Assembly: GCF_000712295.1 (NCBI RefSeq)
Contig: NZ_JMKI01000006.1
Span: forward strand, 1-64,000
Reading direction: 5' to 3'
DNA length: 64,000 nucleotides
Origin: Synergistes jonesii
GTDB taxonomy: Bacteria > Synergistota > Synergistia > Synergistales > Synergistaceae
Both the position numbers and the translations under genes were made by a program. Position 1 is the first letter of the stretch. The number at the start of each line of letters is the position of its first letter. Below, piece after piece: positions 3,642 to 22,107 of the stretch. A model generated the notes under the pieces. That model searched no databases and was not told the DNA's origin. It was given only the letters and a program-made list of their open reading frames with translations.

Positions 3642-3692
3642 TGATAACGTTTTTTGGCAAGGTCGTCAGAGCACATGTTCCGCGCGGCGCTT

Positions 3693-3726
3693 AAGCGGGC
3701 TCGAAAAGGGAGCCCCGTGCCCGCTT
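3693..3726. terminator. Hairpin between convergent EamA gene and modC
   Basis: An 8-bp stem (AAGCGGGC 3693-3700 with GCCCGCTT 3719-3726) encloses an alternative GGGCTC/GAGCCC stem at 3697-3702 and 3710-3715. It lies between two converging genes and overlaps the modC stop side. There is no long T-run, so termination strength is uncertain. Confidence 0.45.
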
Positions 3727-4800: not shown

Positions 4801-4803
4801 GGG

Positions 4804-5523: not shown

Positions 5524-5613
5524 TCTCCGTTATCATACGCGGCGGCCTGCGCTCTGCCGCGCTGGCAAACAGCGCCCGATCTTTTTTGAATGTCAAGTCC
5601 TTTTACTGATTAA

Positions 5614-5638
5614 AAAGGGCCGATCGTGTCGGCCCTTT
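5614..5638 (-). terminator. Intercistronic terminator between modA and modB
   Basis: A perfect 10-bp stem (5614-5623 with 5629-5638, loop 5 bases) is followed, on the minus strand, by TTTTTAAT. It lies after the modA stop and before modB. It would end a fraction of transcripts, giving more binding protein than permease. Confidence 0.75.
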
Positions 5639-5676
5639 ACACGAGGAGAGAGAAGAAATAATATTTGCCTGGAATA

Positions 5677-6447
5677 TTACTTCTTCGGAATCGAAAATCC
5701 TGTCTTTGTAAATACTGCCGAGCAAGGGTCGCTCTTGAGGTATTTCACGAACGCTTCGGCCTCGGCCTTATGCTTCGTATCCTTCATGATGGCCGCCGGG
5801 TAGATGATCGGCCTGTGCGTGCCCTTCGGCGCGAAGGAGATCACTTCGACGGCGTCCGAGGTGGCGGCGTCCGTGCTGTAGACCACGCCGCAGTTGACCG
5901 CCGCCGCAGCCGTCTGAGCGAGGACTTCCTTGACGTTGCTGGCGTAGGTGATCTTGTTTTCTTTCTTGAGCTTCTCCCAGATGCCCATGTTCTTGAATAT
6001 CTCTTCCGAATACTGTCCGACGGGGACGTCGGAGTTGCCGAGCGCGATCAGCTTGACCTTGTCGCTCGCCACGTCGCCGAAGCTGCGGATATTCGTCGGG
6101 TTCTGGCCCTTCGGGACGATAAGGACGACCCTGTTCGAAACGATGTCGAAGCGCGTATCGGGCATTACGAACTTGTCGTTGATCGCGTTCATCTGCTTCT
6201 GTCCGGCGGAGATAAAGATGTCGCACTCGGCTCCCTGCTCGATCTGCGTCTTGAGCGTGCCGCTTGAGTCGAAATTGTAGACTATTTTGACGTTCGGGTC
6301 GACTTTCTCATACATCTCGGCGATCTGGTTCATCGATTCCGTCATCGATGCCGCCGCAAAGACATAGAGCTCAGTAGCGGCAAACGCAGGGAGCGCGATC
6401 AGGAGTGCCGCGCAAAGCAGCGCCAAAAGCGAAAGTTTCTTCTTCAT
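5677..6447 (-). CDS. modA: Molybdate-binding periplasmic protein ModA
   Basis: A 256-residue substrate-binding protein. Residues 1-24 form a signal peptide (MKKKLSLLALLCAALLIALP, then AFA). The mature part starts ELYVFAAASMTESMNQIAE and contains VYNFDSSGTLKTQIEQGAECDIFISA; the two Ser-rich loops are the usual oxyanion contacts of ModA. The start at 6447 is chosen because AAGGAGAGG precedes it and it gives a clean signal peptide; the longer frame upstream does not. It captures molybdate in the periplasm for ModBC. Tungstate binding is equally possible from sequence alone. Confidence 0.9.
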   Translation of the reverse strand: MKKKLSLLALLCAALLIALPAFAATELYVFAAASMTESMNQIAEMYEKVDPNVKIVYNFDSSGTLKTQIEQGAECDIFISAGQKQMNAINDKFVMPDTRFDIVSNRVVLIVPKGQNPTNIRSFGDVASDKVKLIALGNSDVPVGQYSEEIFKNMGIWEKLKKENKITYASNVKEVLAQTAAAAVNCGVVYSTDAATSDAVEVISFAPKGTHRPIIYPAAIMKDTKHKAEAEAFVKYLKSDPCSAVFTKTGFSIPKK

Positions 6448-6736
6448 ATAGAACCTCTCCTTCAAGAATTTTTGCAAACCGCGGCGCGGCCGCAATAACG
6501 CAATGAAAATTATATAACGAGCTGCGATTTATTGCAATGCACTTGCGTTGCTGAAATTAAAAAACTTAAGGCTCCGAATAAATTTATGAGACGGCGTATG
6601 ACGCACGGACCGGCCGGCGTTTTTGCGCCGATTTCTCAACGTTCGTGCCGGCATCGCGAAAAAATGCGGGCTCGATTTGACTTAGATACTTTACGAAGGT
6701 ACAATGTCACCGAAATTTTATTTTGGGGGTATGTTA

Positions 6737-8089
6737 ATGCAGCTGGAGCGCTATAACGGCCACATAGAAGAGGCCGATTACCTCAATCTCCTTATGGTGG
6801 ATATCGCCGGCGACATCAGGAGCGTCGCCCTGCCCAAGGGCTACGTGTCGGAGAAGATATTGAAGGACGGCATCGGCTTCGACGCTTCGAATTACGGCTA
6901 CGCGAAGGTCAGCGACTCTGATATGGTCGCGGTCCCCGATATGTCCACCGCGTTTTTCGAGATTCGCGGCGATTACAAGATGCTCCACGTCCTCTGCGAC
7001 GTGGTATCGGCCGACCGCGAAACCTTTGATCAGTACCCGCGCAACGTTATAAAGAAAGCGCGCGATTTCCTCCGCGAGGAGGGCATCGCGGACACGGCGA
7101 AGCTCCTCGTCGAGCTTGAGTATTACGTCTTCGAAGAGGCGGAATACAAGAGCGGCGTGGAGGGCGCGTTCTACCGAGTTAAATCCTCCGAGGGCCTCGG
7201 CGAAGAGTTTGCAAGCAGCCCGAGGGTCTCCCTGCGGGGCGCCTATCACAGGATGCCGCCGGAGGACAGCTACATGGATTTCCGCAACGAAACGGTAAAG
7301 CTGATGGACGTCATCGGCATACCGGTGAAGTACCACCATCACGAAGTCGCTCTCTCGCAGCTCGAGATAGAGCTCGACTTCATGGACATGGCACAGGCCG
7401 CCGACATGGTCTCCCTCGCGAAATGGATAATCCGCCAGGTCGCCGCGGAGTGGGGCTTGCGCGTAACTTTCATGCCGAAGCCCCTCTATAAGATGCCCGG
7501 CAACGGCATGCACGTCCATCAGTTCCTTGAGAAAGGCGGCAGCTCGATTTTCCCCGGCGATGTGCTTTTCAACCTCTCCAACGAAGGGCTTTCCTACATA
7601 GCCGGGATGCTGTCGCACAGCCTGACTGGAAGTCTGCTCGCCTTCGCATGCCCGAGCACCAACAGCTACCGCCGCCTCGTGCACGGCTACGAGGCCCCGG
7701 TCTCAGCGACATTCGCGAAGGGCTCGCGCGCGGCCGCGGTGCGCATCCCCGGCTACGTCAAAAAGGATGAGACGCGCGTCGAATACCGAACCGGCGACGC
7801 GTCGTGCAACCTTTACTTCTTCCTCGCCGCGATGGTGCTCGCCGGAGCCGACGGTATACTAAGAGGGCTGAACCCGGTCGCGCTCGGCTATCAGAGCCGG
7901 GAGGCGAGGGAGGATCTGACCTTCCCGCTGAACCTCAACGCCGTGCTCGACGGCCTTGAGAAGGACGCGGATTACCTCGCTCCGGCCTTCCCCGACAAGC
8001 TGATAGAGCTTTGGATAAAGGCGAAGCGCGCCGAGGCGGAATACGTTTACAACGCGCCGACGCCGCAGGAATACGAGCTCTATTTTTAG
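6737..8089 (+). CDS. Glutamine synthetase family protein (GS type I-like)
   Basis: A 450-residue protein of the GlnA fold. The N-terminal beta-grasp region is followed by the catalytic domain with PKPLYKMPGNGMHVHQF (the KP...H.H ATP/metal motif), RRLVHGYEAPV (the NSYRRL...EAP region) and VEYRTGDASCNLYFFLAAM (the R.P...NPY-like motif, here with SCNLY). True glutamine synthetases carry RIP...ANPYL; the GDASCNLYF variant still fits. The adenylylation Tyr motif is not seen. The ATG at 6737 is chosen because GGGGGT lies 7 bases upstream. It may make glutamine, or be one of the gamma-glutamyl-amine ligase paralogues. A strong terminator follows. Confidence 0.8.
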   Translation: MQLERYNGHIEEADYLNLLMVDIAGDIRSVALPKGYVSEKILKDGIGFDASNYGYAKVSDSDMVAVPDMSTAFFEIRGDYKMLHVLCDVVSADRETFDQYPRNVIKKARDFLREEGIADTAKLLVELEYYVFEEAEYKSGVEGAFYRVKSSEGLGEEFASSPRVSLRGAYHRMPPEDSYMDFRNETVKLMDVIGIPVKYHHHEVALSQLEIELDFMDMAQAADMVSLAKWIIRQVAAEWGLRVTFMPKPLYKMPGNGMHVHQFLEKGGSSIFPGDVLFNLSNEGLSYIAGMLSHSLTGSLLAFACPSTNSYRRLVHGYEAPVSATFAKGSRAAAVRIPGYVKKDETRVEYRTGDASCNLYFFLAAMVLAGADGILRGLNPVALGYQSREAREDLTFPLNLNAVLDGLEKDADYLAPAFPDKLIELWIKAKRAEAEYVYNAPTPQEYELYF

Positions 8090-8122
8090 AGAAACGAAAA
8101 ATTTATGTATAAAAGCATTATA

Positions 8123-8147
8123 AAGGAGGGGCGCTCGGCCCCTCCTT
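8123..8147. terminator. Bidirectional terminator
   Basis: A perfect 10-bp GC-rich stem (8123-8132 with 8138-8147, 5-base loop) followed by GAATTTT sits between the converging glutamine-synthetase-like and deacylase genes. A-rich sequence on the left lets it serve both strands. Confidence 0.8.
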
Positions 8148-8170
8148 GAATTTTGCGCCTGAATTTGCGA

Positions 8171-9118
8171 TTATTTCCCGAAGCTCACGCCGATCGCCGC
8201 GACGAAGCCCTTTTCCCGGAGCGACGAGCTTTCCGTCATATAGAGCACCTTTCCCGTTACCGGCGCGATGAATTTTTCGATCACCGTGCCGAAATAGTCG
8301 GTGAGCAACCCGATCATCTGGCCGCGCTTCACCATGTCGCCGACGCGCACTCTTCTGTAATATATGCCGCGCTTAGACGCGCGCACCTTTTCCATGTTCT
8401 CGAATATCTGCGGTCTGCCGACCGGCTGCTGATTCCCGCGCAGCGAGCCGAGACGGCGCATCACGTTTTTGACTCCGTCTATGTGTATCCTCACGGCCTC
8501 AGCCGACGCGGCGTTCAACCCGCCAGTCTGGAAGAGGACCGACGGGATGCCGATGTTCTCGTAAACGCTCGAGTAGCAACAGCCCTTGTCGGACCAGCGC
8601 CCCTCCGTCTCCGTGATCATGATGTTCGGCATTCCGAAGTAATAGGCCATCTCGTGGGAACGGTCGTTGAGCTCGCCGCGCCTGCCCCTGTGATACGCCG
8701 CAAAGGGGACCGAGCGTTCCTGCGCGCCGCTGCCGTGCAGGTCTATATGGTAATCGGCGCCCTTTATCTCGTCGAATATCTTCGCGGCGAGGACGTCGTT
8801 GTAATTTCCTTTGATCTGGCCGGGGAAGCAGCGGTTGAGATTATTCTCGTCCGCGAATACCGGAGTGAAAGCGCCCGTTTCGAAGGCCGCCGTGTTGCAC
8901 ATCGTGATTATTTTGATGCTCCCCTTTACGTCGGCCGGCGTAAGCTCGTGCAGCAGCTTTATCGCGGCAAGCTCGCTGCAGAACTCCCCGGCGTGGATGC
9001 CGGCCGTTATGACGGCTTCGGGCCCCGGCTCGTCGCCTATTATCAAGCCGACCGGAAGTTCGATCGTTTGCCCGCCGTCCGTTGGAAATTGCAGAATTTC
9101 AGTTTTTTTCCCACCCAT
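8171..9118 (-). CDS. Succinylglutamate desuccinylase / aspartoacylase-family zinc hydrolase
   Basis: A 315-residue M14-like metallohydrolase. The zinc ligands are visible as HAGE (in AGIHAGEFCSE, the HxxE pair) and the His of DYHIDLHGSG. Near the middle, TETEGRWSDKG carries the likely catalytic Glu. The C-terminal 80 residues (KRGIYYRRVRVGDMVKRGQMIG and onward) resemble the small beta domain with biotinyl-lipoyl-like repeats found in this subgroup. Members remove acyl groups from N-acyl amino acids or amides. The neighbouring amino-acid genes fit such a role, but the substrate is unknown. Confidence 0.85.
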   Translation of the reverse strand: MGGKKTEILQFPTDGGQTIELPVGLIIGDEPGPEAVITAGIHAGEFCSELAAIKLLHELTPADVKGSIKIITMCNTAAFETGAFTPVFADENNLNRCFPGQIKGNYNDVLAAKIFDEIKGADYHIDLHGSGAQERSVPFAAYHRGRRGELNDRSHEMAYYFGMPNIMITETEGRWSDKGCCYSSVYENIGIPSVLFQTGGLNAASAEAVRIHIDGVKNVMRRLGSLRGNQQPVGRPQIFENMEKVRASKRGIYYRRVRVGDMVKRGQMIGLLTDYFGTVIEKFIAPVTGKVLYMTESSSLREKGFVAAIGVSFGK

Positions 9119-11930: not shown

Positions 11931-12041
11931 GTACTGCGCTATATATTTTTGTACTTTAAAAGATAAAAAATTATAGCTTTTTGTTAAAATGGATACTAAA
12001 AAGTGTGAAAGTATGTTATCCTGTCTTCTGAGGTGAATTTT

Positions 12042-12677
12042 ATGGGAGAAAAGTCATCGCTGTCGGCGCAGGTATATGAAAGCATAAAAGAGGGGATAAT
12101 ATCGCTGAAATATCCGCCGGGATCGGTGCTTAAAGAGCGCGAGCTCTCCGAAAGCCTCGGCGTCAGCCGCACGCCTGTCCGCGAAGCGATACAGCGCCTT
12201 TCCCAGGAGTCATGGCTCGTACCGGGAGAGGGCAAAAGAATGCAGGTGCGCCCCGTCACTACGGCCGACATACATGAGATCATCCAGATCCGCAACCTTG
12301 TGGAATTCGCCGCGGTAGACGAGCTGATCATGCACGGAGAGCCGCGCGTCGTAGCAGGGCAGCTTGATTCCATATTAAACGAAATGAAGGGCGCGAAGGA
12401 AGAGTTCACACTTGTGACGCTCGACCTCAAATTCCATCACCTGCTGGTCGAAAGCATGAATAACGAAAGGCTTTTGAGATTCTGGGGCACCGTGCAGGAC
12501 GAAGTTAAGAGAATGGGGCTGTTGAGGCTCAGAGGAAACGACCGCTGGCACGAGGTGATAAACGAGCACGGGCGTATGGTGGAGACCCTTTGGGACAAAG
12601 ATCTGCAAAATACCAGGCTCGCGCTGAGGGAACATTTGGAACGCAGCTATGCCAATCTGATAAGCGAATCGGAATAA
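12042..12677 (+). CDS. GntR-family transcriptional regulator, FadR/FCD subfamily
   Basis: A 211-residue regulator. The N-terminal winged helix-turn-helix contains LKERELSESLGVSRTPVREAIQRL, the standard GntR recognition region. The C-terminal FCD domain is all-helical and carries likely metal-ligand positions (the D and H of LDLKFHHLL, H of NEHGRMVE, H of LREHLERS). FCD regulators sense small carboxylates and usually control the catabolic genes beside them. Here it lies immediately upstream of the DUF2848-XDH locus in the same direction, separated by a terminator and a good promoter, so it is probably that locus's regulator. ATG 12042 is preferred over GTG 12033 on spacing from GAGG. Confidence 0.9.
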   Translation: MGEKSSLSAQVYESIKEGIISLKYPPGSVLKERELSESLGVSRTPVREAIQRLSQESWLVPGEGKRMQVRPVTTADIHEIIQIRNLVEFAAVDELIMHGEPRVVAGQLDSILNEMKGAKEEFTLVTLDLKFHHLLVESMNNERLLRFWGTVQDEVKRMGLLRLRGNDRWHEVINEHGRMVETLWDKDLQNTRLALREHLERSYANLISESE

Positions 12678-12722
12678 CGGCGGGATAATAAAAAGAATAA
12701 TTTAAGCATTGCATTCTAATTG

Positions 12723-12761
12723 AAAAAAGAGAATCGAAAAAAGATTCTCTTTTTTGTTTTT
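12723..12761 (+). terminator. Rho-independent terminator after the GntR gene
   Basis: A perfect 13-bp stem (12723-12735 with 12743-12755, loop 7) runs straight into T-rich sequence. It isolates the regulator transcript from the catabolic operon. Confidence 0.9.
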
Positions 12762-12779
12762 ATAAGCCCGAGTATCCTC

Positions 12780-12808
12780 TTGACAAAATTGCATTCAAAA
12801 TAGATAAT
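12780..12808 (+). promoter_or_regulatory. Sigma-70-type promoter of the DUF2848-XDH operon
   Basis: TTGACA (12780-12785), 17-base spacer, GATAAT (12803-12808). TTGCAT-type motifs recur around it: GCATTC inside the spacer, TTGCAT at 12809-12814 and ATGCAA at 12832-12837 as an inverted pair. These are candidate GntR operator halves placed to block transcription. Confidence 0.75.
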
Positions 12809-12878
12809 TTGCATGCCAAGAAGTTAAGAGTATGCAATGTTATTGCGATTAAAGCTAAGTTAGAGAGGAGCAAGCAGT

Positions 12879-13580
12879 GTGAAATTTACTGTTTTAGAGA
12901 AAAACGGAAAAGAGAAAGTCATAGACTTTATTCCGAAGCATATCATCAATGCGGGCTACACAGGACGCGACCAGACGGCTGTGCAGGCCCACATCGACGA
13001 ACTGAAGGAAAAGGGCATTCCCGCGCCCGACAAGACGCCTGTCTATTTCGTCAAATTCGGCGACAGGCTGACTCAAGAGGAAAAGTTCGAGGTACTTGAT
13101 GAAACGGATCATTCCGGAGAGGCTGAATTCGCGCTCTTCTTCGACGGGGATGAGATATACGTAGGCGTCGGCAGCGACCACACCGACCGCAAGCTCGAAG
13201 AGGTAAACATTCCTAAAGCGAAGCAGATGTACCCCAACACAGTGAGCAGAAAGCTCTGGAAGCTGAGCGACGTCGTCGACCATTGGGACGATATAACGCT
13301 CCGCAGCTGGATAAAGGTAAACGGGAAGAAGACTCTCTTCCAGGAAGCAAAGCTGACGGCCATGCTGGATGCGGCGGATCTTATCAAAAGGACGAAAGAA
13401 CTTCTTCGCAGCCCCGAGGAAACTGACGGGCTCGTTCTCTACTCCGGGACCGTCGCATCCCTTTTCAGCGCGGACTACAGCCCGTATTTCGAGACGGAAC
13501 TCGAAGATCCGGTCCTCGGAAGGAAGCTTGGCGAATCCTACGAAATGACCTGCGTCTCGTCTTGGTATAAAGGCGATTGA
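12879..13580 (+). CDS. DUF2848 family protein
   Basis: A 233-residue cytoplasmic protein of the DUF2848 family. The family signature regions are visible: YTGRDQTAVQAHIDELKEKGIP, SGEAEFALFFDGDEIYVGVGSDHTDR, SRKLWKLSDVVDHWDDITLRSW and LEDPVLGRKLG. GSDHTDR and the acidic residues around EAE look like a metal or active site, reminiscent of fumarylacetoacetate-hydrolase-like folds, but this is inference. No reaction is established to my knowledge. It starts at GTG 12879 after AGAGGAG and heads the operon, so it probably encodes an enzyme of the pathway, perhaps the ring-opening or hydrolytic step. Confidence 0.85.
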   Translation: MKFTVLEKNGKEKVIDFIPKHIINAGYTGRDQTAVQAHIDELKEKGIPAPDKTPVYFVKFGDRLTQEEKFEVLDETDHSGEAEFALFFDGDEIYVGVGSDHTDRKLEEVNIPKAKQMYPNTVSRKLWKLSDVVDHWDDITLRSWIKVNGKKTLFQEAKLTAMLDAADLIKRTKELLRSPEETDGLVLYSGTVASLFSADYSPYFETELEDPVLGRKLGESYEMTCVSSWYKGD

Positions 13581-13617
13581 CTTTTACACAAATAAATCAT
13601 AAGGAGGAGCTTCTATC

Positions 13618-14019
13618 ATGGCAAAACAGGAATACGAAATTCGCGACGTCGATCTCAACGGCGAGTGGCGCCTTGTCGAAGGCGGCTACAACGGAACGAT
13701 GGAGAAAATCCTCTCCTACGACCCGGAGACCGGAAACTACACAAGGCTCCTTAAGTTCCCTCCACGTACGGAGATGCCCGAAGTGCTGACGCACGACTTC
13801 TGCGAGGAGATCTACGTCGTCGACGGATACCTTACCGACACGAAAAAGAATCTCACGATGGCCAAAGGTTACTATGGCTCGCGCCTTCCCGGCATGGAGC
13901 ACGGCCCCTACAGCATTCCTCTCGGCTGCATGACGATGGAGTTCCGCTATCAGGACCCCAACAAGCCTATCAGCAAGGACTGCTCGCTGCTCAAAAACAA
14001 GCTCGGCGCACCCAGATAA
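13618..14019 (+). CDS. Cupin-domain protein (ChrR-like cupin)
   Basis: A 133-residue small beta-barrel protein. The first cupin motif is represented by THDFCEEIYVVDGYL (His and Glu metal ligands), the second by PGMEHGPYSIPLGC (His). The layout LLKFPPRTEMPEVLTHD resembles the anti-sigma ChrR cupin domain and the small cupins found in catabolic operons. It follows DUF2848 by 37 bases with an AAGGAGGAG site, so it is in the same operon. It may be a metal-dependent isomerase or lyase, or an accessory protein; no function can be assigned. Confidence 0.8.
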   Translation: MAKQEYEIRDVDLNGEWRLVEGGYNGTMEKILSYDPETGNYTRLLKFPPRTEMPEVLTHDFCEEIYVVDGYLTDTKKNLTMAKGYYGSRLPGMEHGPYSIPLGCMTMEFRYQDPNKPISKDCSLLKNKLGAPR

Positions 14020-14110
14020 AACCTTCGCGGGTTTTATCGCCCCGAGGCGTTTATATGACGAGTAAGCGCCTCTATTTAAGGATTTTTCTTTATTTTTGGA
14101 GGATGAACAT

Positions 14111-15331
14111 ATGAAACCGAATCTTGCCGTGGAATACTGCGGCGTCAAATTCAAAAACCCGATGCTCATAGCTTCCGCTTCTCCCAGCAAAAACGCCGAA
14201 TACATGCGCAGATGCGCCGAGTCGGGGGCCGGCGGGGTCATCGCAAAGACGTACAGCCCGGAGCCGCTCGCGCAGCAGTATGTCTCGCCCCGTTTCACGG
14301 TCCTCAACAAAAAAGGCTGGCCGCACAGCTATTCGAACTATTCCTGCGAATTCCTCGCGACCTATGACACGGAAGGATGGATGCGCGAGATGAAAATCGC
14401 GAAGAAGGAGTGCGACGAAAGAAACTGCACTCTCGTAGGCAGCATCTCCGGCAATTCCAGGGAAAGCTGGGCCGACTTAGCGAAGCGCATGGAGGGGATC
14501 GGGCTTCCGATGCTCGAGCTCAACTTCGGCTGCCCGCACCCGAAGGACCTCGGCTACAAGAGCGGGCAGGAACTCGGCAACTCCCCCGACGCGGCGGCGG
14601 AAGTCACGAATATCGTATGCAATGCGGTAAAAATCCCCGTATTCGTCAAGCTGACGAGTGAAGCGGTCAATATCGTCGACGTTGCCGGACGCTGCAAGGA
14701 GGCCGGAGCTTCGGGCTTCACCGTGGTAAACCGCTTCTCGGCCCTCGACGTCGATATCGAGACGGGACGCCCTATACTGCACGGAGGCTACGCCGGAGTC
14801 GGCGGCCCCTGGATGCGCCCGATCACGCTGAAGTGGATAGCGAAGATCACCTCTGCCCACGGTATGCCTATCTCGGCGACGAACGGCATATTCGGCTGGG
14901 AAGACGTCATCAAGTGCATCATGTGCGGCGCGACGACGGTCCAGACCTGCACCGCCATTATGTACGGCAAAAAACAGTTCGCCGAAGTCAAAAACTTCCT
15001 CGGCGGAGTCGAAAAGTATCTCGTCGATTACAACATAGACGACATCAACAAACTCCGCGGGGTAACGCTGCCGCAGATCGTCACATGGGACAAGGTAGAC
15101 CGCGAGCACAAGGCGATAAGCAAAGTCGACAGGGAGAAGTGCGTCGGCTGCGGAATGTGCCCGAGCTGGTGTTTCTACGACGCGATAACGCTCATAGAGG
15201 ACGGCGGAAAGAAAAAGTCCTTCATCGATCCGAAAAAGTGCGACGGCTGCGGCCTCTGCGCCGCGCTCTGCCCAAAGGACGCGATAAAGATGGAATGTGA
15301 CGTGCCCATTTATATGGGAGATTTTAATTAG
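14111..15331 (+). CDS. PreA-like dihydropyrimidine dehydrogenase family flavoprotein with ferredoxin domain
   Basis: A 406-residue protein with an FMN TIM barrel like that of dihydroorotate/dihydropyrimidine dehydrogenase (PreA, C-terminal half of DPD), followed by a 2[4Fe-4S] ferredoxin domain from residue 340 (CVGCGMCPSWC and CDGCGLCAALCP). The active-site loop reads NFGCPHPKDLGYKSGQELG; in pyrimidine-reducing enzymes the general acid is a Cys in LACGQ, here replaced by S151. Ser at this position is typical of class 2 dihydroorotate dehydrogenases. No PreT-like FAD partner is adjacent, so electrons must come from another donor or pass to one. It probably reduces or oxidises a ring C=C bond in the pathway substrate. 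Confidence 0.8.
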   Translation: MKPNLAVEYCGVKFKNPMLIASASPSKNAEYMRRCAESGAGGVIAKTYSPEPLAQQYVSPRFTVLNKKGWPHSYSNYSCEFLATYDTEGWMREMKIAKKECDERNCTLVGSISGNSRESWADLAKRMEGIGLPMLELNFGCPHPKDLGYKSGQELGNSPDAAAEVTNIVCNAVKIPVFVKLTSEAVNIVDVAGRCKEAGASGFTVVNRFSALDVDIETGRPILHGGYAGVGGPWMRPITLKWIAKITSAHGMPISATNGIFGWEDVIKCIMCGATTVQTCTAIMYGKKQFAEVKNFLGGVEKYLVDYNIDDINKLRGVTLPQIVTWDKVDREHKAISKVDREKCVGCGMCPSWCFYDAITLIEDGGKKKSFIDPKKCDGCGLCAALCPKDAIKMECDVPIYMGDFN

Positions 15332-15341
15332 AAGATAGATT

Positions 15342-16127
15342 ATGTTGATTAACGGCAGACTGTCCATAGTTCGCGGCGGCGGCGACATCGCGACGGGAAT
15401 AATCTACAGGCTGTGGAAGTGCGGCTTCAAGGTGCTTGCGCTTGAGATCAGCAAGCCTCTTGTGGTTAGGCGTACCGTATCGGTGGCCTCTGCCGTCTTC
15501 AGTGGAAAATGTACAGTCGACGGAATGCCGGCGGCGCTTGTTTCTTCTCCGGAAGATGTTTTTTTAAGCAGCGGCGTCTCGGTTATTGTCGATCCGGAAG
15601 GAAAATCTATCGCTAAACTGCATCCACATGTGGTGGTGGACGCGATAATGGCGAAAAAAAACACGGGAACAACAATTGATATGGCGCCACTGGTCATAGG
15701 CGTAGGTCCGGGATTCACAGCAAACGTTGACGTTCATTATGTTGTCGAAACCAAAAGAGGGCATACCCTAGGCAGGGTGATTTCCGAAGGAGCGGCGATC
15801 CCAAACACAGGAATCCCGGGAACTGAAGGCGGCTATACTACTGAACGCTTGTTAAGGGCTCCGGCTGACGGATACCTGGCCCCTTGCAGAGAGATCGGCG
15901 ATCACGTTGAGCCCGGAGCGCTGATCGGTACAGTCGACGGCGTCGAAGTCCGCGCTCATATCCGCGGGATGCTCAGAGGGTTGATACATCCTTCTGTCTA
16001 TGTTACTAAGGGCATGAAGATAGGGGATGTGGACCCGCGCGATATACGCGAGCACTGTTTTACGATCTCAGATAAAGCGTTCGCCGTTGCAGGCGGTGTG
16101 CTGGAAGGCGTTTTAAGAGGAAGTTGA
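15342..16127 (+). CDS. yqeB: YqeB / EF2563-family selenium-dependent molybdenum hydroxylase accessory protein
   Basis: A 261-residue protein of the YqeB family, recognised by the N-terminal VRGGGDIATGIIYRLWKCGF, GKCTVDGM and the C-terminal lipoyl-like region (APADGYLAPCREIGDHVEPGALIG). This family co-occurs with molybdenum hydroxylases that need an inserted selenium atom, so it marks the next three genes as a likely selenium-dependent hydroxylase. It starts 11 bases after the PreA-like gene. Codon and base use become clearly more AT-rich from here, suggesting that this part of the operon has a different origin. The selenium role rests on family knowledge only. Confidence 0.85.
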   Translation: MLINGRLSIVRGGGDIATGIIYRLWKCGFKVLALEISKPLVVRRTVSVASAVFSGKCTVDGMPAALVSSPEDVFLSSGVSVIVDPEGKSIAKLHPHVVVDAIMAKKNTGTTIDMAPLVIGVGPGFTANVDVHYVVETKRGHTLGRVISEGAAIPNTGIPGTEGGYTTERLLRAPADGYLAPCREIGDHVEPGALIGTVDGVEVRAHIRGMLRGLIHPSVYVTKGMKIGDVDPRDIREHCFTISDKAFAVAGGVLEGVLRGS

Positions 16128-16161
16128 ATATACTCCGATTGGCAGGAGGTTTGTAGATATA

Positions 16162-16641
16162 ATGGAAGCGCGAGAACTCAATTTTACTGTGAACGGCAAA
16201 CCCCAGAAAATCGAAATACGCACAAATTGGACTCTTGCTCAAGTCCTGCGTGATAAACTCGGGCTTTTGGGGACAAAAATCGGATGCGGTGAAGGCGAAT
16301 GCGGAGCTTGTACCGTGTTTATGAATGGCAAGACCGTTACTTCGTGTTTGGTCCTCGCCGTACAGGCGGAAGGTTCCGAAATCATAACTATTGAAGGATT
16401 GTCAGACGGTAAAACGCTGCACCCTGTACAGCAGGCATTCGTGGATGTGGGCGCCATTCAGTGCGGCTATTGTACGCCGGGCATGGTAATGTCAACTGTC
16501 GCTTTGCTGCAGAGACACCCTGACCCGACTGATGAGCAGATTCGCTACGGCCTGACGGGGAATCTTTGCCGCTGCACTGGTTATCAGAAGATATTCGAAG
16601 CGGTAAAGCTCGCCTCAAAAAGAATCAGGGGGGCTGCATGA
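16162..16641 (+). CDS. Xanthine dehydrogenase-family 2Fe-2S subunit
   Basis: A 159-residue two-domain iron-sulfur protein. The plant-type ferredoxin domain binds one cluster with C42, C47, C50 and C62 (GCGEGECGACT). The helical second domain binds the other with CGYCTPGM and CRCTGYQKI. This is the standard small subunit that carries electrons from the molybdenum centre to FAD. The start is preceded by AGGAGG. Its last four bases overlap the start of the molybdenum subunit (ATGA), so translation is coupled. Confidence 0.92.
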   Translation: MEARELNFTVNGKPQKIEIRTNWTLAQVLRDKLGLLGTKIGCGEGECGACTVFMNGKTVTSCLVLAVQAEGSEIITIEGLSDGKTLHPVQQAFVDVGAIQCGYCTPGMVMSTVALLQRHPDPTDEQIRYGLTGNLCRCTGYQKIFEAVKLASKRIRGAA

Positions 16642-18977
16642 TGTCGGATGTTCATTTTGAAAAAGGCAATTTTACGGTAGTAGGTACAAAACAACCTTAC
16701 GTCGATGCTTTTGACAAAGTCACTGGCCGCACAACTTATATAACGGATTTTTCTCTTCCTGGGATGCTTCATGGAAAAGCTCTACGTAGCCCGTATCCTC
16801 ATGCGCGTATTCTTTCGATAGATACCTCAGCGGCTGAAAAAGTGCCTGGAATAAAATGTGTGATTACCGGCAAAAACATACGGCAAAATAAATGGGGACC
16901 TGTAACGAAAGACGAATATCTGCTCGCCGTCGACAAAGTAAATTTTGTTGGAGACGAGGTCGCGGCTGTGGCCGGCATTGATGAGGAAGCGTGTGAGGAA
17001 GCCCTTTCAAAGATCAAAGTGGAATATGAGCCTTTGCCGGCCATACTCACGATGCACGACGCGATGAAAGAAGGCGCTCCGGTCATACATGAAGCTTTCC
17101 CGCGCAATGTCAATCATCATTTCGATATTCCACGCGGCGATATAGAATCTGTTTTTAAAAACGCATATCTCGTACATGAAGGCGAATATGAGACACAGCT
17201 CGAATATCAGGCATATATAGAGCCTATGGGTGGTGTGTCGACATGGGACAGCAAGGGCAATCTGACAATTTATGCCGGAATACAGACGCCGACGTGGTCA
17301 AGAAATGACTATGCCGTTGCTCTTGATATGCCGGTTGAAAAAATAAGGATAGTGCAGCAGTATTTCGGAGGAGGGTTCGGAGCTAAACTTTCTCAGCAGG
17401 TTCACCCGCTGGGGGCGCTTATCGCCAAGTACGCCGGGCAGCCGGTAAGGTTTGTCTTAGACAGGTCAGAAGATTTTCAGTGCGGCTTGCCGAGGGTCCC
17501 GATGTATTTCAGAATCAAAACTGCCTGGGATAAAAATGGTAAATATCTTGGCAAATATACATACATACTTGCGGACAACGGCGCATACGCGTCTTACGGG
17601 GCTCCTATTGCGCTGACGGCAATGTATCGTATAGACATCATGTATCAAGTTCCGGTGCTGCGCTCTGTGTGCGATTTGGTTTATACAAATAAGGTCCCCA
17701 CGGGCTGCTTCAGAGGTTTTGGAAATACTCAGATGCACCTTGCGCACGAATCCCACATTGATGAAGTTGCTGAGATGCTCGGAATCAGTGCGCAGGAATT
17801 ACGCTATCGCAATCTTGCTGTTCCGGGCTATAAAAACCCGCATGGTTGGAAGACCAACAGCTGCGAAATCAGACAGTGCATTGAAAAAGCAGTTAAAAAG
17901 TCTGATTACGACAACAAACGCAAGGAGCTTGCCGAAGAGAACGAGAAGAATGATTCTATAAAAAGAGGCATCGGACTTGCCGGGGCCGTCCATGTTTCCG
18001 GTAATAGGTCGTTCATCAAGCCTTTCGAAGGCGCTGGCATAATCCTAAGAATGAATGAGCAGGGCCGTGTGTATGTCTACAGCAACGAACCTGATATGGG
18101 ACAGGGAATAAGGACTACGCTTAGCATTTGCGTCGCCGATGGCTTAAAGCTCGACTTTGATCGCATATGCGTTCCAGATCCTGATACGAACGTAGTTCCC
18201 TTTGGCCTGGGCTGCTTTGCCAGCAGAGGAACATATATGGCGACTGGCGCTTTGCATGTGGCCATAGAGGATATGAAGGGCAAGCTGCTTAACCTCGCTT
18301 CGGATCTGCTGTCACTTCCCAAGGAAGAGCTTGAGTTAGAAAATGGTTCCGTAGTATCGAAAAATGACAAATCAAAAAGAGCGACATATGCAGAGCTTGC
18401 ATGGAAACACGTGTGTGACTTCCCCGGACAGCACATACTCGGAATCGGACATTTCACACCCGCCGGGGTCGAATACCCCGACGCGACAAAATACAACAAT
18501 ATTTCCGGCGGATATGCCTTTGGCTGTGACGTTGCCGAGGTGGAAGTCAATACTAATACAGGGGAAATAAAGGTCTCGAATATCTGGGCGGTCCACGATG
18601 TCGGTCAGCCTATAAATCGCTTGGCCTTAGAAGGGCAACTTCAGGGAGGTATAGCTCAGGGGTACGGATGGGCCGTAATGGAGCATTTGAAATACAATCC
18701 TGATGGAAAGGCGGCAAATGCTTGCTTCCTCGATTATCAAATCCCTACTGCTGCCGATATACCTAATATAGATGTTGACTTTGCCGACAGCTTTGAGTGG
18801 ACGACGGGATTTGGAGCTAAATCGATAGGCGAGTGTGCAACAAATCCTGCTGCGCCTGCGATACTCAACGCCATATACAATGCCATAGGAATAAGATTTC
18901 ACAACCTTCCAATAACCGCAGAAAAAGTTTTTAGCGCGTTACGTGAAAAAGAAAAAGCGTCAAAGACGGTGGAATAG
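16638..18977 (+). CDS. Xanthine dehydrogenase-family molybdenum-binding subunit
   Basis: A 779-residue Mo-cofactor subunit. Key motifs are present: QQYFGGGFGAKL (cofactor binding), GCFRGFGNTQ (the substrate-facing Arg motif), GQGIRTTL, and the C-terminal GAKSIGECATNP whose Glu is the catalytic base that activates the Mo-bound water. It hydroxylates a carbon next to a ring nitrogen. The family includes xanthine, nicotinate and purine hydroxylases, which cannot be separated by motifs alone. The ATG at 16638 overlaps the upstream stop. The gene is more AT-rich than the genes before 15.3 kb. With YqeB upstream, a selenium-containing centre is likely. Confidence 0.9.
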   Translation: MMSDVHFEKGNFTVVGTKQPYVDAFDKVTGRTTYITDFSLPGMLHGKALRSPYPHARILSIDTSAAEKVPGIKCVITGKNIRQNKWGPVTKDEYLLAVDKVNFVGDEVAAVAGIDEEACEEALSKIKVEYEPLPAILTMHDAMKEGAPVIHEAFPRNVNHHFDIPRGDIESVFKNAYLVHEGEYETQLEYQAYIEPMGGVSTWDSKGNLTIYAGIQTPTWSRNDYAVALDMPVEKIRIVQQYFGGGFGAKLSQQVHPLGALIAKYAGQPVRFVLDRSEDFQCGLPRVPMYFRIKTAWDKNGKYLGKYTYILADNGAYASYGAPIALTAMYRIDIMYQVPVLRSVCDLVYTNKVPTGCFRGFGNTQMHLAHESHIDEVAEMLGISAQELRYRNLAVPGYKNPHGWKTNSCEIRQCIEKAVKKSDYDNKRKELAEENEKNDSIKRGIGLAGAVHVSGNRSFIKPFEGAGIILRMNEQGRVYVYSNEPDMGQGIRTTLSICVADGLKLDFDRICVPDPDTNVVPFGLGCFASRGTYMATGALHVAIEDMKGKLLNLASDLLSLPKEELELENGSVVSKNDKSKRATYAELAWKHVCDFPGQHILGIGHFTPAGVEYPDATKYNNISGGYAFGCDVAEVEVNTNTGEIKVSNIWAVHDVGQPINRLALEGQLQGGIAQGYGWAVMEHLKYNPDGKAANACFLDYQIPTAADIPNIDVDFADSFEWTTGFGAKSIGECATNPAAPAILNAIYNAIGIRFHNLPITAEKVFSALREKEKASKTVE

Positions 18978-18993
18978 GGGGGAGGCCCGGATC

Positions 18994-19845
18994 ATGTTTA
19001 ATATATCTTACATTGCTCCCGATAAGCAGGTGGATGCGCTCAATTATCTCTATGAACATAAATGCGCACGCGTATTGGCTGGGGGAACTGACCTTATCGC
19101 CAAATGGAAAAAGATCGGTCACCCTGATATGGAGCTGCTTGATATCCGCAATATAGAAGGCTTCAAAGAGATCTCAGCGTTTGAAGGATGGCTCTTTATA
19201 GGTACGGCTGTGACTATGGATATGGTGCAGTACAGCGACGTTATTCGCGAGAAGTATCCTATACTTGCGGAAGCTGCCGGAATGGTGGGCTCAGTACAGG
19301 TGAGGAACATGGCGACGATAGGCGGAAACAGCTGCAATGCAGCGCCGTCGGCAGATACCGTCTTGCCGTTGATTGTTTACGATGCCGAAGCCGTCATCGT
19401 TTCGAAAAATGCTGAAAGACGCCGTCCATTGAAAAAATTCTTTTTAGGTCCGGGCAAGACTATCCTGCAGCAGGGCGAACTGCTCAAAGGATTTATTCTT
19501 CCTCTGCCAGCGCCCGCGACATATGCCTCGTTTGTCAAGCACAGCCGCCGTGCGGGGATGGATCTAGCGACGGTCGGCACAGCGGTAAAGCTCAGCTTCG
19601 AAAAGGGCGTGATCGGCGATATTAAGATCGCTCTGGGCGCTGTAGGACCTGTACCTATCTTTATCGAAGCTCTTGAACAATTTATCGGCTTGAAGCTTGA
19701 CGGCGATGCGGTCGAACGCTTGGCGCGTATTTCAGAAGAGCAGGCAAGACCGATAACTGACGTCAGAGGAAGCAAGGAATACAGAAAAGATATGGTCTAC
19801 GAAGAGGTAAGATCCTCTCTGTTGAAAATTGCTGCTGCAATGTAA
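18994..19845 (+). CDS. Xanthine dehydrogenase-family FAD-binding subunit
   Basis: A 283-residue flavoprotein of the CO-dehydrogenase/XDH medium-subunit type. The FAD pyrophosphate motif is ARVLAGGTDLIAKWK near residue 30, and the second flavin motif is MATIGGNSCNAAPSADT near residue 110. Electrons from the 2Fe-2S subunit leave through FAD to NAD or another acceptor. The start at 18994 is selected because GGGGGGAGG precedes it; the longer frame reads back into the molybdenum subunit gene. Gene order small-large-FAD differs from many xdhABC operons. Confidence 0.9.
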   Translation: MFNISYIAPDKQVDALNYLYEHKCARVLAGGTDLIAKWKKIGHPDMELLDIRNIEGFKEISAFEGWLFIGTAVTMDMVQYSDVIREKYPILAEAAGMVGSVQVRNMATIGGNSCNAAPSADTVLPLIVYDAEAVIVSKNAERRRPLKKFFLGPGKTILQQGELLKGFILPLPAPATYASFVKHSRRAGMDLATVGTAVKLSFEKGVIGDIKIALGAVGPVPIFIEALEQFIGLKLDGDAVERLARISEEQARPITDVRGSKEYRKDMVYEEVRSSLLKIAAAM

Positions 19846-20000
19846 CAAGTAATACAATGCGGATTTGAATCGTCACTATCGAATCTTTCAGTACGCAGGC
19901 GTAGAAAAGCCGGCTTTTTGCCCTGCGCGCTGTTGGAGTAGTGCCTTAAACATGCTGTGCAACGCATTTCAAAAACTGAAGATAAAGGGGAGCTGCAAAT

Positions 20001-21233
20001 ATGGCAATATTTGAAAAAGGCCCTGGGTTCGCTGAAGGGTTGCGTTCTTTTTGGGGCGACCAGAACTTTGCAAACGTAAGCAACGGAATAATCGACGGAC
20101 TGGTATTTGGAATTATAGCTATTCCGCTTATACAGAAGGCCTGTTCCGTTGCGAACCTGCCGCCTGAGGTCGTCGAAAGCTGGCTTGTCACAGTCTATGT
20201 CGGCGGAGGCATCATAAGCTGCATAATGGCGCTTTATTACAAACTTCCCATAGTCGGCGCATGGTCTATCCCTGGCGCTATGGCCCTTGCGCAGGTACTC
20301 GGCAATTTCACTCTACCTGAAATTGTAGGAGGATTTCTGGTCGCCGGCCTCTTTGACCTGATTTTGGGGCTTACTGGCACAGTCAGACTGCTGGTTAGGA
20401 AGATACCGGGCGCCGTAATGATGGCGATGGTTGCGGGCACTCTGTTCGGGTGGGGTTCAAAATGCGTGACGTCATTTAAGACCGCTCCTGTAATATGCGC
20501 ATGCGGCGTAATCGGATTTGTGGTCTGTAAAAAATTCCTCAAAAAGATTCCCGCTGTCATGGGCACACTGATAGCAGTTTTCATAGCTTCTATAGCAATG
20601 GGTAAACTTACAGCGGTACCGCTTGATTTCTCAATCGCCAAACCGATGTTCGTCATGCCGGCGTTCAACTTTAAGGCGGCCCTTTCTATAGGAATCCCGC
20701 TTGGCCTTTTGGTCGTCTGCGCCGAGAATATGCAGGCGATAGGTGTTCAGGTTGCGATCGGCAAAAAACCTCCAGTCACGGCAATGACAGTTGTGAGCGG
20801 CATCGGCGGGATAGTGGCGCCATTCTTCTGCGGGCATAACTGCAACATCGCCGGTCCGATGACTGCGTGGGCCGGCAGCGACGACTGCGGGGACGTCGAT
20901 AAGCGCTATGTGGCGGCGGTTTGGTGCGGCGTCGCTTTCGCGCTTACTGGGATCTTTGCGAAATTCACGATGGGGCTGCTCGCGATGATACCGGCCGAAG
21001 CGCTCAACATGGTCGTCAGCCTGACGCTTATCGGCATGATAATCGGCGCTCTCGGAGATTCTTTCGGCTCCGGGAAATTTAAGTTTGGCAGCTTTGCCTC
21101 ATTCATCACGGCGGCGAGCGGCGTAACATTCTTCGGCATCGGTTCGGCGTTCTGGGCTCTCTTTGCCGGTACGATCATCACGCTTCTCCTTGAGAAGGGT
21201 GATTACGACGCGATGGTCTCGCCGCTTGATTAA
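20001..21233 (+). CDS. BenE-family (NCS2-fold-like) membrane transporter
   Basis: A 410-residue protein with about 12 to 14 hydrophobic segments. AWSIPGAMALAQVLG, the GIPLGLLVVCAENMQAIG segment and APFFCGHNCNIAGPMTAW match the BenE benzoate/H+ symporter layout, where the substrate site sits between half-helices. BenE proteins share the fold of nucleobase transporters, so an aromatic or heterocyclic acid is a reasonable cargo. The gene follows the hydroxylase subunits after 155 bases with its own good ribosome site (AAAGGGGAG). It is probably the uptake system of this locus. Confidence 0.75.
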   Translation: MAIFEKGPGFAEGLRSFWGDQNFANVSNGIIDGLVFGIIAIPLIQKACSVANLPPEVVESWLVTVYVGGGIISCIMALYYKLPIVGAWSIPGAMALAQVLGNFTLPEIVGGFLVAGLFDLILGLTGTVRLLVRKIPGAVMMAMVAGTLFGWGSKCVTSFKTAPVICACGVIGFVVCKKFLKKIPAVMGTLIAVFIASIAMGKLTAVPLDFSIAKPMFVMPAFNFKAALSIGIPLGLLVVCAENMQAIGVQVAIGKKPPVTAMTVVSGIGGIVAPFFCGHNCNIAGPMTAWAGSDDCGDVDKRYVAAVWCGVAFALTGIFAKFTMGLLAMIPAEALNMVVSLTLIGMIIGALGDSFGSGKFKFGSFASFITAASGVTFFGIGSAFWALFAGTIITLLLEKGDYDAMVSPLD

Positions 21234-21257
21234 CACAGATTAGGTATAATTCTCATA

Positions 21258-21296
21258 TGGCGTGGCGCAGCTCGGCCGCATCGCTGCGCCACGCCA
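21258..21296 (+). terminator. Long perfect hairpin between transporter and nitrilase genes
   Basis: A 14-bp perfect GC-rich stem (21258-21271 with 21283-21296, loop 11). No T-run follows, so it may act as a transcript-stabilising or partial termination structure rather than a full stop. Confidence 0.55.
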
Positions 21297-21327
21297 GATT
21301 AATTCATGGACAAGGAGTGGATGTATT

Positions 21328-22107
21328 TTGAAAGTTTCATCTATTCAGCTGGAAATCAAAAACTCGCGCAGCAAAGACGGGACCATTGACTACGTTCTCT
21401 CATTGATGGACAGGTGTGCCGGAGACGATCTGATCATTCTGCCTGAACTTTGGAACGTCGGCTTCTTCGGCTACGACGAATATAAGTCGTCGAGCGAGCC
21501 GATAAACGGCAAGACCGCTTCGGCGATATCGAAAAAGGCGAAGGAGCTCGGCGCGTACGTTTATTCGGGGAGCTTCGTGGAAAACAAAGACGGCAAATAT
21601 TACAACGCCAGCGTCCTCTTCGACCGCGAGGGGCGCGACATCCTCGAATACAGAAAAATGCATCTCTTCTCGTACAACTGTAAGGAGCCTGAGATACTCA
21701 CACCGGGCGAAGAGATTTCCGTAGCGTCCACCGAATTCGGACGCTTCGGGCTTGCGACCTGCTACGACCTGCGCTTCCCGGAGCTTTTCAGAAAGATGGC
21801 TGTCGAAAAGGGCGCCGAATTTTTCCTCGTGACGTCCGCTTGGCCCTTCCCGAGGGTCGAGGCCTGGAACGCGCTGAACCAGGTGCGCGCGCTTGAGAAT
21901 ACCTGCTATTTGATCTCCTGCAACGCGGTCGGTGTCGACCGCGGCGTCCGCCTCGCCGGCCACAGCCAGATCGTGGACCCGTGGGGCTACGTGTTGGCCG
22001 CGTCAGGCTACGAAGAGACGATCGTCAGAGCCGAGATACCGGCGGGCAGCGTTGCGAGAATACGAAAAGAGTTCCCCGTCCTGAAGGACAGGCGCCTGAC
22101 GGTTTAA
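21328..22107 (+). CDS. Carbon-nitrogen hydrolase (nitrilase superfamily, omega-amidase-like)
   Basis: A 259-residue CN-hydrolase with the full catalytic triad: E40 (ILPELWN), K110 (YRKMHLF) and C145 (ATCYDLRFPE). The RFPELFRKM sequence after the Cys fits the omega-amidase/NIT2-like branch; beta-ureidopropionase-like activity, common in pyrimidine breakdown, is an alternative. The start is TTG at 21328, 10 bases after AAGGAG; no ATG in this frame lies close. It would hydrolyse an amide or carbamoyl compound after ring opening. Base composition returns to GC-rich here. Confidence 0.85.
   Translation: MKVSSIQLEIKNSRSKDGTIDYVLSLMDRCAGDDLIILPELWNVGFFGYDEYKSSSEPINGKTASAISKKAKELGAYVYSGSFVENKDGKYYNASVLFDREGRDILEYRKMHLFSYNCKEPEILTPGEEISVASTEFGRFGLATCYDLRFPELFRKMAVEKGAEFFLVTSAWPFPRVEAWNALNQVRALENTCYLISCNAVGVDRGVRLAGHSQIVDPWGYVLAASGYEETIVRAEIPAGSVARIRKEFPVLKDRRLTV

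What the first reader, a model, noticed from the sequence alone, without database searches (positions are those of the whole stretch)
14111..15331. PreA-like enzyme with Ser in place of the catalytic Cys and no PreT partner
The loop NFGCPHPKDLGYKSGQELG has S151 where dihydropyrimidine dehydrogenases have the proton-donating Cys (LACGQ). Ser is used by membrane-type dihydroorotate dehydrogenases. The gene lacks the FAD subunit PreT beside it. Both suggest a different substrate or direction from uracil reduction.
Basis: partly seen in the sequence, partly recalled or inferred. Interest (0 to 1): 0.5.

Follow-up and report, generated by a model that had tools for sequence, protein, structure and literature searches.

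The report
Ring-reducing enzyme in Synergistes catabolic cluster
This gene encodes an iron-sulfur flavoenzyme with the usual catalytic cysteine intact that, judged by its neighbours, probably helps a gut bacterium break down a nitrogen-containing ring compound other than uracil.

Summary
The gene at 14111-15331 is real and PreA-like (DHO_dh FMN barrel, one C-terminal 2x[4Fe-4S] domain). The headline claim is wrong: DPD's catalytic Cys671 lies in NLSCPHG and is kept here as Cys141 (NFGCPHP), Cys in 34 of 34 aligned rows. Class 2 PyrD has its Ser in the Cys141 column. Absence of PreT is confirmed, but ferredoxin/viologen-driven relatives without it are known (PydAc, UacX). "Different substrate" still looks right for other reasons: Thr737 is Arg208 in all 11 subfamily rows, a separate clade, and the gene sits in a Synergistaceae cluster whose core is FAH-fold DUF2848, cupin, this enzyme and a Mo hydroxylase, with variable YqeB, transporter and nitrilase-type amidase, and no pyrimidine-pathway genes among the ten scanned. 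Best reading: a ferredoxin-dependent reductive dearomatase for an oxidised N-heteroaromatic; exact substrate unknown. The host is genus Synergistes, probably S. jonesii; genes of its pyridinediol pathway were not found in print, and a link is possible but untested.

The parts
12033..12677 (+). GntR/FCD transcription regulator
   Evidence: Pfam FCD and GntR; 64-80% homologues at the head of the related clusters G134, G072, G076, G051, G182 and 42% in G180
12879..13580 (+). DUF2848 protein (PF11010), predicted FAH fold
   Evidence: Pfam; AlphaFold model from 5 sequences, pLDDT 71.6; the 11 Foldseek hits with E <= 0.001 are Cg1458, HpcE, 2-keto-3-deoxy-sugar-acid dehydratases and a diketo-acid hydrolase, which I recall as FAH-family enzymes
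13618..14019 (+). small cupin (Cupin_7)
   Evidence: Pfam; 74-96% homologues in related clusters; 32-34% homologues with DUF2848 in Caballeronia and Thioclava plasmids
14111..15331 (+). PreA-like FMN/2x[4Fe-4S] reductase; catalytic Cys141, Arg208 in place of DPD Thr737
15342..16127 (+). YqeB, selenium-dependent Mo-cofactor protein
   Evidence: TIGR03309 344 bits, cut-off 220
16162..16641 (+). Mo hydroxylase small (2x[2Fe-2S]) subunit
   Evidence: Pfam Fer2, Fer2_2
16638..18977 (+). Mo hydroxylase large (molybdopterin) subunit
   Evidence: Pfam MoCoBD_1/2; closest solved structure 4-hydroxybenzoyl-CoA reductase alpha
18988..19845 (+). Mo hydroxylase FAD subunit
   Evidence: Pfam FAD_binding_5, CO_deh_flav_C
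20001..21233 (+). BenE-family transporter
   Evidence: Pfam BenE; TIGR00843 188.3 bits, below its cut-off of 203.4
21298..22107 (+). nitrilase-superfamily amidase, Nit2-like
   Evidence: Pfam CN_hydrolase; best solved match 'nitrilase homolog 2' 2w1v, E 1.7e-37; its omega-amidase role is recalled

Best explanation
The protein is a one-subunit, PreT-less member of the DPD/DHOD-B family that works as a ferredoxin-dependent reductive dearomatase on an N-heterocycle other than uracil. Shown by sequence: FMN-type DHO_dh barrel, conserved lysines, asparagines and catalytic Cys141, eight Cys for two [4Fe-4S] clusters, and Arg208 where DPD and DHOD have Thr/Ser. Inferred: low-potential electrons (ferredoxin) pass through the C-terminal clusters to FMN, which gives a hydride to the beta carbon of an alpha,beta-unsaturated lactam while Cys141 protonates the alpha carbon, as in DPD. 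Inferred pathway: a BenE-type carrier imports an aromatic acid; the Mo hydroxylase (probably selenium-dependent) puts an oxo group next to the ring nitrogen; this enzyme reduces the ring, with Arg208 binding an acidic group; the FAH-fold DUF2848 protein and the cupin help open or tautomerise the ring to the omega-amide of a 2-oxo acid; the Nit2-like amidase releases ammonia. One concrete guess that uses every gene (about 1 in 5): picolinate -> 6-hydroxypicolinate -> tetrahydro-6-oxopicolinate -> 2-oxoadipamate -> 2-oxoadipate.
For: Catalytic Cys, FMN-site Lys574/Lys709 and Asn668/Asn736 equivalents all present. Thr737 column: Arg in 12 of 34 rows (11 of 11 subfamily rows plus distant L014), Ser in 1, Thr in 21. 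The subfamily is one clade, 100/98 support. Subfamily found in 10 of 185 Synergistota genomes; a Mo hydroxylase lies beside it in 9 of 10, and in the tenth (G182) the contig ends at the gene. In G134 the hydroxylase is a different one (large subunit 40% identical), so the pairing survives a swap. In G088 a similar set (nitrilase, DUF2848, cupin, Mo hydroxylase) carries an FrhB-family Fe-S protein where the PreA-like gene would be. YqeC and SelD are encoded in the genome. Precedent: C. difficile UacX, a PydA homologue without FAD domain in a cluster with Mo hydroxylase XdhD, converts yanthine in a coupled assay with SsnA, and was assayed with reduced methyl viologen (PMC12507026, passages); PydAc uses ferredoxin (PMC7332683, abstract and part 1 of 4 of the text, passages).
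Against: No activity, expression or ligand data. The electron donor is unproved: unlike PydAc, the protein has only one Fdx domain, and none of the ten cluster genes is a separate ferredoxin (gaps between them are at most about 200 bases). The later genes of the proposed pathway are not constant: an orthologue of the amidase (73-83%) stands in G134, G051 and locus L027 only, while G072, G076, G179 and G180 have a different nitrilase (about 27%) nearby; BenE is missing beside the G134 and G076 copies; YqeB is missing between the genes in G051, G168 and G010. The second G134 copy has no DUF2848 directly before it. The AlphaFold model is poor (pLDDT 49.6), so the place of Arg208 in the pocket is inferred from alignment only. 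The substrate is not fixed by any test here. Whether DPD Asn609 is kept depends on the alignment (Asn76; Ser78 in the HMMER alignment).
Confidence: 0.68

Rival explanations
1. One reading: a PreA-like enzyme whose catalytic Cys is replaced by Ser151, as in membrane-type DHODs.
For: S151 lies in the same loop and is the same in all 6 rows of the subfamily alignment.
Confidence: 0.02
2. It is a ferredoxin-dependent uracil/thymine reductase (PydAc-like) that merely sits in this cluster.
For: Same family; PydAc lacks PreT and FAD (PMC7332683); uracil-type catalytic residues kept.
Against: Thr737->Arg in all 11 subfamily rows; no dihydropyrimidinase or ureidopropionase among the ten cluster genes; pairing with a Mo hydroxylase; lacks the second Fdx domain of PydAc. 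Genes that look by eye like an amidohydrolase and an M20-type hydrolase lie elsewhere, at C10, so a dispersed pathway is not excluded.
Confidence: 0.08
3. It is the ring reductase for pyridinediols (2,3-DHP or 3,4-DHP, the Leucaena toxins) in S. jonesii.
For: The genome is genus Synergistes: G182 is listed as the same genus and its contig C75 has the length and match coordinates of L025, titled Synergistes sp. Tb.RUG.71. Its size and contig number (2,741,240 bp, 60 contigs) are near the S. jonesii 78-1 draft (2,747,397 bp, 61; PMC4153494). S. jonesii isomerises 3,4-DHP to 2,3-DHP and cleaves the ring (PMC12366334, section 5 part 1 of 2). The toolkit fits. Only one member of this reductase subfamily is in the genome.
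Against: The cluster is also in relatives from other genera for which no DHP degradation is known to me; a table in the Cloacibacillus porcorum paper gives DHP degradation for S. jonesii only (PMC3709534, passages; that G072 and G134 are Cloacibacillus is a guess from genome size). The genome holds about 11 Mo hydroxylase large subunits and other candidate clusters. DHP carries no carboxylate for Arg208 or a BenE carrier.
Confidence: 0.12
4. It is a UacX-type purine (yanthine) reductase of the reductive uric acid pathway.
For: Same family, FAD-less, next to a Mo hydroxylase, as in C. difficile (PMC12507026, passages).
Against: None of the ten cluster genes is of the amidohydrolase, M20, OTCace or PALP families named for that pathway; DUF2848, cupin and Nit2-like amidase instead.
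Confidence: 0.06

Closest known systems
PreA / PydA2, FMN subunit of NAD-dependent dihydropyrimidine dehydrogenase
   Same: FMN barrel plus one C-terminal 2x[4Fe-4S] domain, catalytic Cys, Asn668 and Asn736 equivalents
   Different: no PreT, Thr737->Arg, 29% identity to E. coli PreA, 252.6 bits against the NCBIfam cut-off of 335
PydAc, ferredoxin-dependent DPD of Clostridium (PMC7332683)
   Same: no FAD/NADPH domain
   Different: PydAc has two Fdx domains and sits in a Pyd cluster; this protein has one Fdx domain and no Pyd genes among the ten cluster genes; I held no PydAc sequence, so no direct alignment
UacX of C. difficile (PMC12507026)
   Same: DHO_dh-family reductase without FAD domain, with a Mo hydroxylase, acting on a non-uracil ring
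   Different: different downstream genes; UacX is said to resemble PydAc in architecture; I held no UacX sequence, so no direct alignment
Dihydroorotate dehydrogenase B (PyrDB)
   Same: barrel and N-x-x-C-P motif with the catalytic Cys
   Different: extra Fe-S domain; no pyr genes among the neighbours scanned; 178.7 bits against the TIGR01037 cut-off of 270

Membership tests
PreA (NAD-dependent DPD subunit) | catalytic Cys in the N-x-[SG]-C-P motif | tested here: met
   Cys141; 34 of 34 rows Cys
PreA (NAD-dependent DPD subunit) | FMN barrel plus C-terminal 2x[4Fe-4S] | tested here: met
   Pfam, eight Cys 344-387, Foldseek top hits DPD although from a poor model
PreA (NAD-dependent DPD subunit) | PreT partner | tested here: not met
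   none in the window; genome-wide a GltA-type subunit, an OYE-GltD fusion and one partial hit not scanned
PreA (NAD-dependent DPD subunit) | Thr737 of the substrate pocket | tested here: not met
   Arg208; that Thr737 contacts the pyrimidine is recalled
PreA (NAD-dependent DPD subunit) | score above the NCBIfam PRK08318 cut-off | tested here: not met
   252.6 against 335 bits
PydAc / UacX | FMN domain without FAD/NADPH domain | tested here: met
   406 aa, no FAD domain in the Pfam scan
PydAc / UacX | two Fdx domains of eight Cys each (stated for PydAc) | tested here: not met
   only one, Cys 344-387
PydAc / UacX | activity with reduced ferredoxin or viologen | not testable with these tools
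   needs an assay
Class 2 DHOD | Ser at the catalytic base position | tested here: not met
   Cys141 in the column where E. coli PyrD has Ser
Dihydroorotate dehydrogenase B | score above TIGR01037 and pyr gene neighbours | tested here: not met
   178.7 against 270 bits; no pyr genes among the neighbours scanned
Selenium-dependent Mo hydroxylase system | YqeB beside the enzyme, YqeC and SelD in the genome | tested here: met
   (SelD match has one in-frame TGA); marker role from PMC2276186, passages
Selenium-dependent Mo hydroxylase system | selenium in the enzyme | not testable with these tools
   needs metal/selenium analysis

The most novel reading that the evidence does not exclude
The cluster at 12033-22107 is the reductive pathway (or part of it) by which Synergistes jonesii opens the ring of the Leucaena toxins 3,4-DHP/2,3-DHP, with this Arg208 enzyme as the dearomatising step: a further biochemical use of the DPD family, after pyrimidines and purines.
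Probability: 0.12. Interest if true: 0.78.

Novelty: new variant of a known kind. Interest (0 to 1): 0.42.

Why it matters
If the reading is right, the DPD family is used by gut Synergistaceae to dearomatise a further N-heterocycle, and a whole cluster, including the unnamed family DUF2848 with a predicted FAH fold, gains a testable role. If the substrate proved to be a pyridinediol, it would give gene markers for a rumen detoxification used in livestock for decades; the abstract of a 2025 review (PMC12366334) recommends work on the pathways of toxin degradation. The correction itself matters too: it stops a conserved Cys enzyme from being filed as a Ser variant.

Tried and rejected
Ser-for-Cys reading: rejected by three alignments. 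PreT elsewhere: the best genome matches are GltA-type (574.5 bits to TIGR01316, cut-off 471.75) and an OYE-GltD fusion, rejected as PreT; the third, partial hit in C36 was not scanned. Structure-based check: the AlphaFold model of the enzyme was too poor (pLDDT 49.6) to place residues; its Foldseek hits (DPD first, DHOD-B next) are only supportive. Classical nicotinate pathway: a second cluster on the same contig (C6:113-131 kb, L066) with an amidohydrolase, methylaspartate ammonia-lyase, a 507-aa 4Fe-4S protein and a Mo hydroxylase looks more like it; this assignment is from recall of Eubacterium barkeri and was not tested. Pyrrole-2-carboxylate was considered because DUF2848 and the cupin occur with a two-component monooxygenase and an amidase in aerobes; the literature search gave nothing decisive (listing only). 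Of 55 plasmid records with DUF2848 I looked at 4; the Pantoea one has DUF2848 and an amidase but no cupin or monooxygenase in the stretch shown. DUF2848 in print: 0 papers in the library. Searches for genes of the DHP pathway listed none that I recognised as naming genes in S. jonesii; I saw the listings, part of PMC12366334, passages of PMC3709534 and the whole of PMC4153494, and subscription papers are not held. The search for anaerobic picolinate genes gave one irrelevant paper. The wider search for the subfamily used two peptide patterns only, so absence outside Synergistota is not shown; one of its loci (L027) is labelled Caldisericia, perhaps a mis-binned contig.

Rows dropped before counts: the G010 copy (173 aa at a contig end) is not in the 34-row panel, and L028 and L053 were left out as duplicates of L012 and L026. 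Panel rows other than the window, E. coli PreA, PyrDB and pig are tblastn-aligned segments, not full ORFs; row L052 has one in-frame stop. 'Canonical' PreA rows L090, L091, L093-L095 were chosen because a gene annotated NAD(P)-dependent oxidoreductase, which I take for PreT, lies directly upstream.

Full report
What is there. The ORF at 14111-15331 (+) encodes 406 aa, preceded by GGAGG (a TTG start 15 bases upstream is also open). Pfam finds a DHO_dh domain (5-293) and a C-terminal 4Fe-4S dicluster. NCBIfam ranks PreA first, but at 252.6 bits against a cut-off of 335. The best solved relative by sequence is pig dihydropyrimidine dehydrogenase (E 6.6e-40).

The catalytic Cys is present. In pig DPD the catalytic Cys671 lies in the motif LNLSCPHG. 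The HMMER alignments show this directly: the wild type reads 'lscph', the sequence of 1h7x and 7m32 reads 'lsaph', and that of 7m31 reads 'lssph'; the PDB titles call these C671A and C671S mutants. That column holds Cys141 of the window protein (NFGCPHP). In a 34-row MAFFT panel, window and pig included, the Cys671 column is Cys in 34 of 34 rows. S151 aligns with Met in pig and E. coli. E. coli class 2 PyrD carries its Ser (NISSPN) in the Cys141 column, so the membrane-type comparison also points to Cys141, not S151.

No PreT. The matches to E. coli PreT in the genome are C26:120515 (38%; TIGR01316 GltA over its cut-off), C6:129214 (33%; an Oxidored_FMN-GltD fusion) and a partial hit in C36 (29%, not scanned). 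None lies in the window. This is not strong evidence on substrate. PydAc of Clostridium chromiireducens lacks the FAD domain and reduces uracil with ferredoxin (PMC7332683; abstract, part 1 of 4 of the text and passages). In C. difficile, UacX, a PydA homologue without FAD domain, acts on the purine yanthine in a coupled assay with SsnA, in a cluster with the Mo hydroxylase XdhD; reduced methyl viologen was the donor in the assay (PMC12507026; passages). Of seven other Synergistota PreA-like loci with the usual Thr that I inspected, one has a PreT-like gene directly beside it and one has one about 6 kb away. PydAc has two Fdx domains; this protein has one, Cys 344, 347, 350, 354, 377, 380, 383 and 387.

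What does differ. The column of DPD Thr737 (recalled as a pyrimidine contact) is Arg in 12 of 34 rows: the 11 subfamily rows and the distant L014. It is Thr in 21 and Ser in 1. Lys574, Asn668, Asn736 and Lys709 equivalents are kept in the window protein. Asn609 is either kept as Asn76 or replaced by Ser78 (alignment). In a maximum-likelihood tree the subfamily is one clade (100/98), apart from the PreT-linked PreA clade and from the other Synergistota PreA-like proteins except L014; the program warns of long branches, and deep forks are weak.

Neighbourhood. Genes on the same strand form a run from 12033 to 22107: GntR regulator, DUF2848, small cupin, this enzyme, YqeB, three Mo hydroxylase subunits, BenE-type transporter, Nit2-like amidase. 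A two-hairpin stretch lies between cupin and this gene (z -2.9), so one transcript is not proved. Subfamily members (67-89% identity) occur in 10 of 185 Synergistota genomes searched. A Mo hydroxylase lies beside the gene in 9 of 10; in the tenth (G182) the contig ends at the gene. DUF2848 lies upstream in 8 of the 8 genomes whose contig extends that way, and the cupin was seen in 7 of these 8 (in G179 my ORF choice may hide it). The rest of the run varies: YqeB is not between the genes in G051, G168 and G010; BenE is absent beside the G134 and G076 copies; an orthologue of the amidase (73-83%) stands in G134, G051 and locus L027, while G072, G076, G179 and G180 have a different nitrilase (about 27%) nearby. 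In G134 the hydroxylase is a different one (large subunit 40%), and a second copy of the reductase (67%) has no DUF2848 directly before it. In G088 a similar set carries an FrhB-family Fe-S protein in place of the PreA-like enzyme. DUF2848 occurs in 38 of 185 genomes. Of 11 loci without the subfamily that I inspected, it sits with a GntR gene and a nitrilase in 6 (G048, G024, G044, G017, G067, G098), with a nitrilase in 2 more (G112, G088), and without one in 3 (G002, G082, G005); transporter-like genes near it were judged by eye. In two proteobacterial plasmids (Caballeronia, Thioclava) DUF2848 and the cupin sit with an HpaB-type monooxygenase (domain shown by Pfam for Caballeronia, by annotation for Thioclava), a flavin reductase and an amidase; in Priestia DUF2848 sits with a GntR gene and a nitrilase that has a weak Cupin_7 match, below the cut-off; in Pantoea with a GntR gene and an amidase. 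These are 4 of 55 plasmid records. The DUF2848 model (pLDDT 71.6, from 5 sequences) matches enzymes of 2-oxo acids that I recall as FAH-family. YqeC and SelD are encoded in the genome, as expected for selenium-dependent Mo hydroxylases (PMC2276186, passages).

Host. G182 is listed as the same genus as the window; its contig C75 (4,516 bases, match 3267-4484) has the length and match coordinates of L025, titled Synergistes sp. isolate Tb.RUG.71. The window's assembly (2,741,240 bp, 60 contigs; window GC 55.2%) is close to the S. jonesii 78-1 draft (2,747,397 bp, 61 contigs, GC 56%; PMC4153494, whole text).

Mechanism. Shown: residues, domains, neighbours. Inferred: ferredoxin -> [4Fe-4S] -> FMN -> hydride to the beta carbon of an oxo-N-heterocycle, proton from Cys141; Mo hydroxylase before it; FAH-fold protein, cupin and omega-amidase after it. 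Arg208 and the BenE carrier suggest an acidic ring substrate. The picolinate route in the explanation is chemical reasoning, not a result.

Verdict. A new variant of a known kind. The named observation is wrong at its core, one half (no PreT) is right, and the conclusion of another substrate survives on different evidence. Interest rests on the uncharacterised cluster and on the possible, untested link to pyridinediol breakdown.

Noticed in passing
L025:4080-4082 (G182:C75): The orthologue in Synergistes sp. Tb.RUG.71 has TGA at codon 272 where the window and two other relatives have TGC (Cys); it could be a sequencing error, a broken gene or selenocysteine.
   Followed up: partly
window 14005-14072: Two consecutive hairpins between the cupin and the PreA-like gene (stretch 14005-14125 folds with z -2.9), possibly an attenuator or processing site.
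   Followed up: no
window 3727-6495: A molybdate-type ABC transporter (labelled modABC by eye from the sequence) lies 5.5 kb upstream of the cluster; a homologous set (56-79% identity) lies next to the cluster in L030.
   Followed up: partly
L066 (G000:C6:113000-132900): A second candidate N-heterocycle cluster on the same contig: amidohydrolase, methylaspartate ammonia-lyase, 507-aa 4Fe-4S protein, Mo hydroxylase, OYE-GltD fusion, YqeB.
   Followed up: partly
whole genome G000: About 11 Mo hydroxylase large subunits in a 2.7-Mb genome (17 matching stretches), three outside the window with YqeB nearby.
   Followed up: partly
L017:5726-6970 (G134): A second, 67% identical copy of the reductase about 9.5 kb from the first, with the same Arg208.
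   Followed up: partly
L024 (G107:C102): A distant relative (36%) that also has Arg at the Thr737 column, but Ala at the Asn736 column, sits with a fumarate-reductase-like flavoprotein, an RraA-like protein and a gene that looks by eye like UbiD.
   Followed up: no
window 6704-9118: A glutamine synthetase-like protein and an AstE/AspA-type deacylase upstream of the cluster; relation unknown.
   Followed up: no
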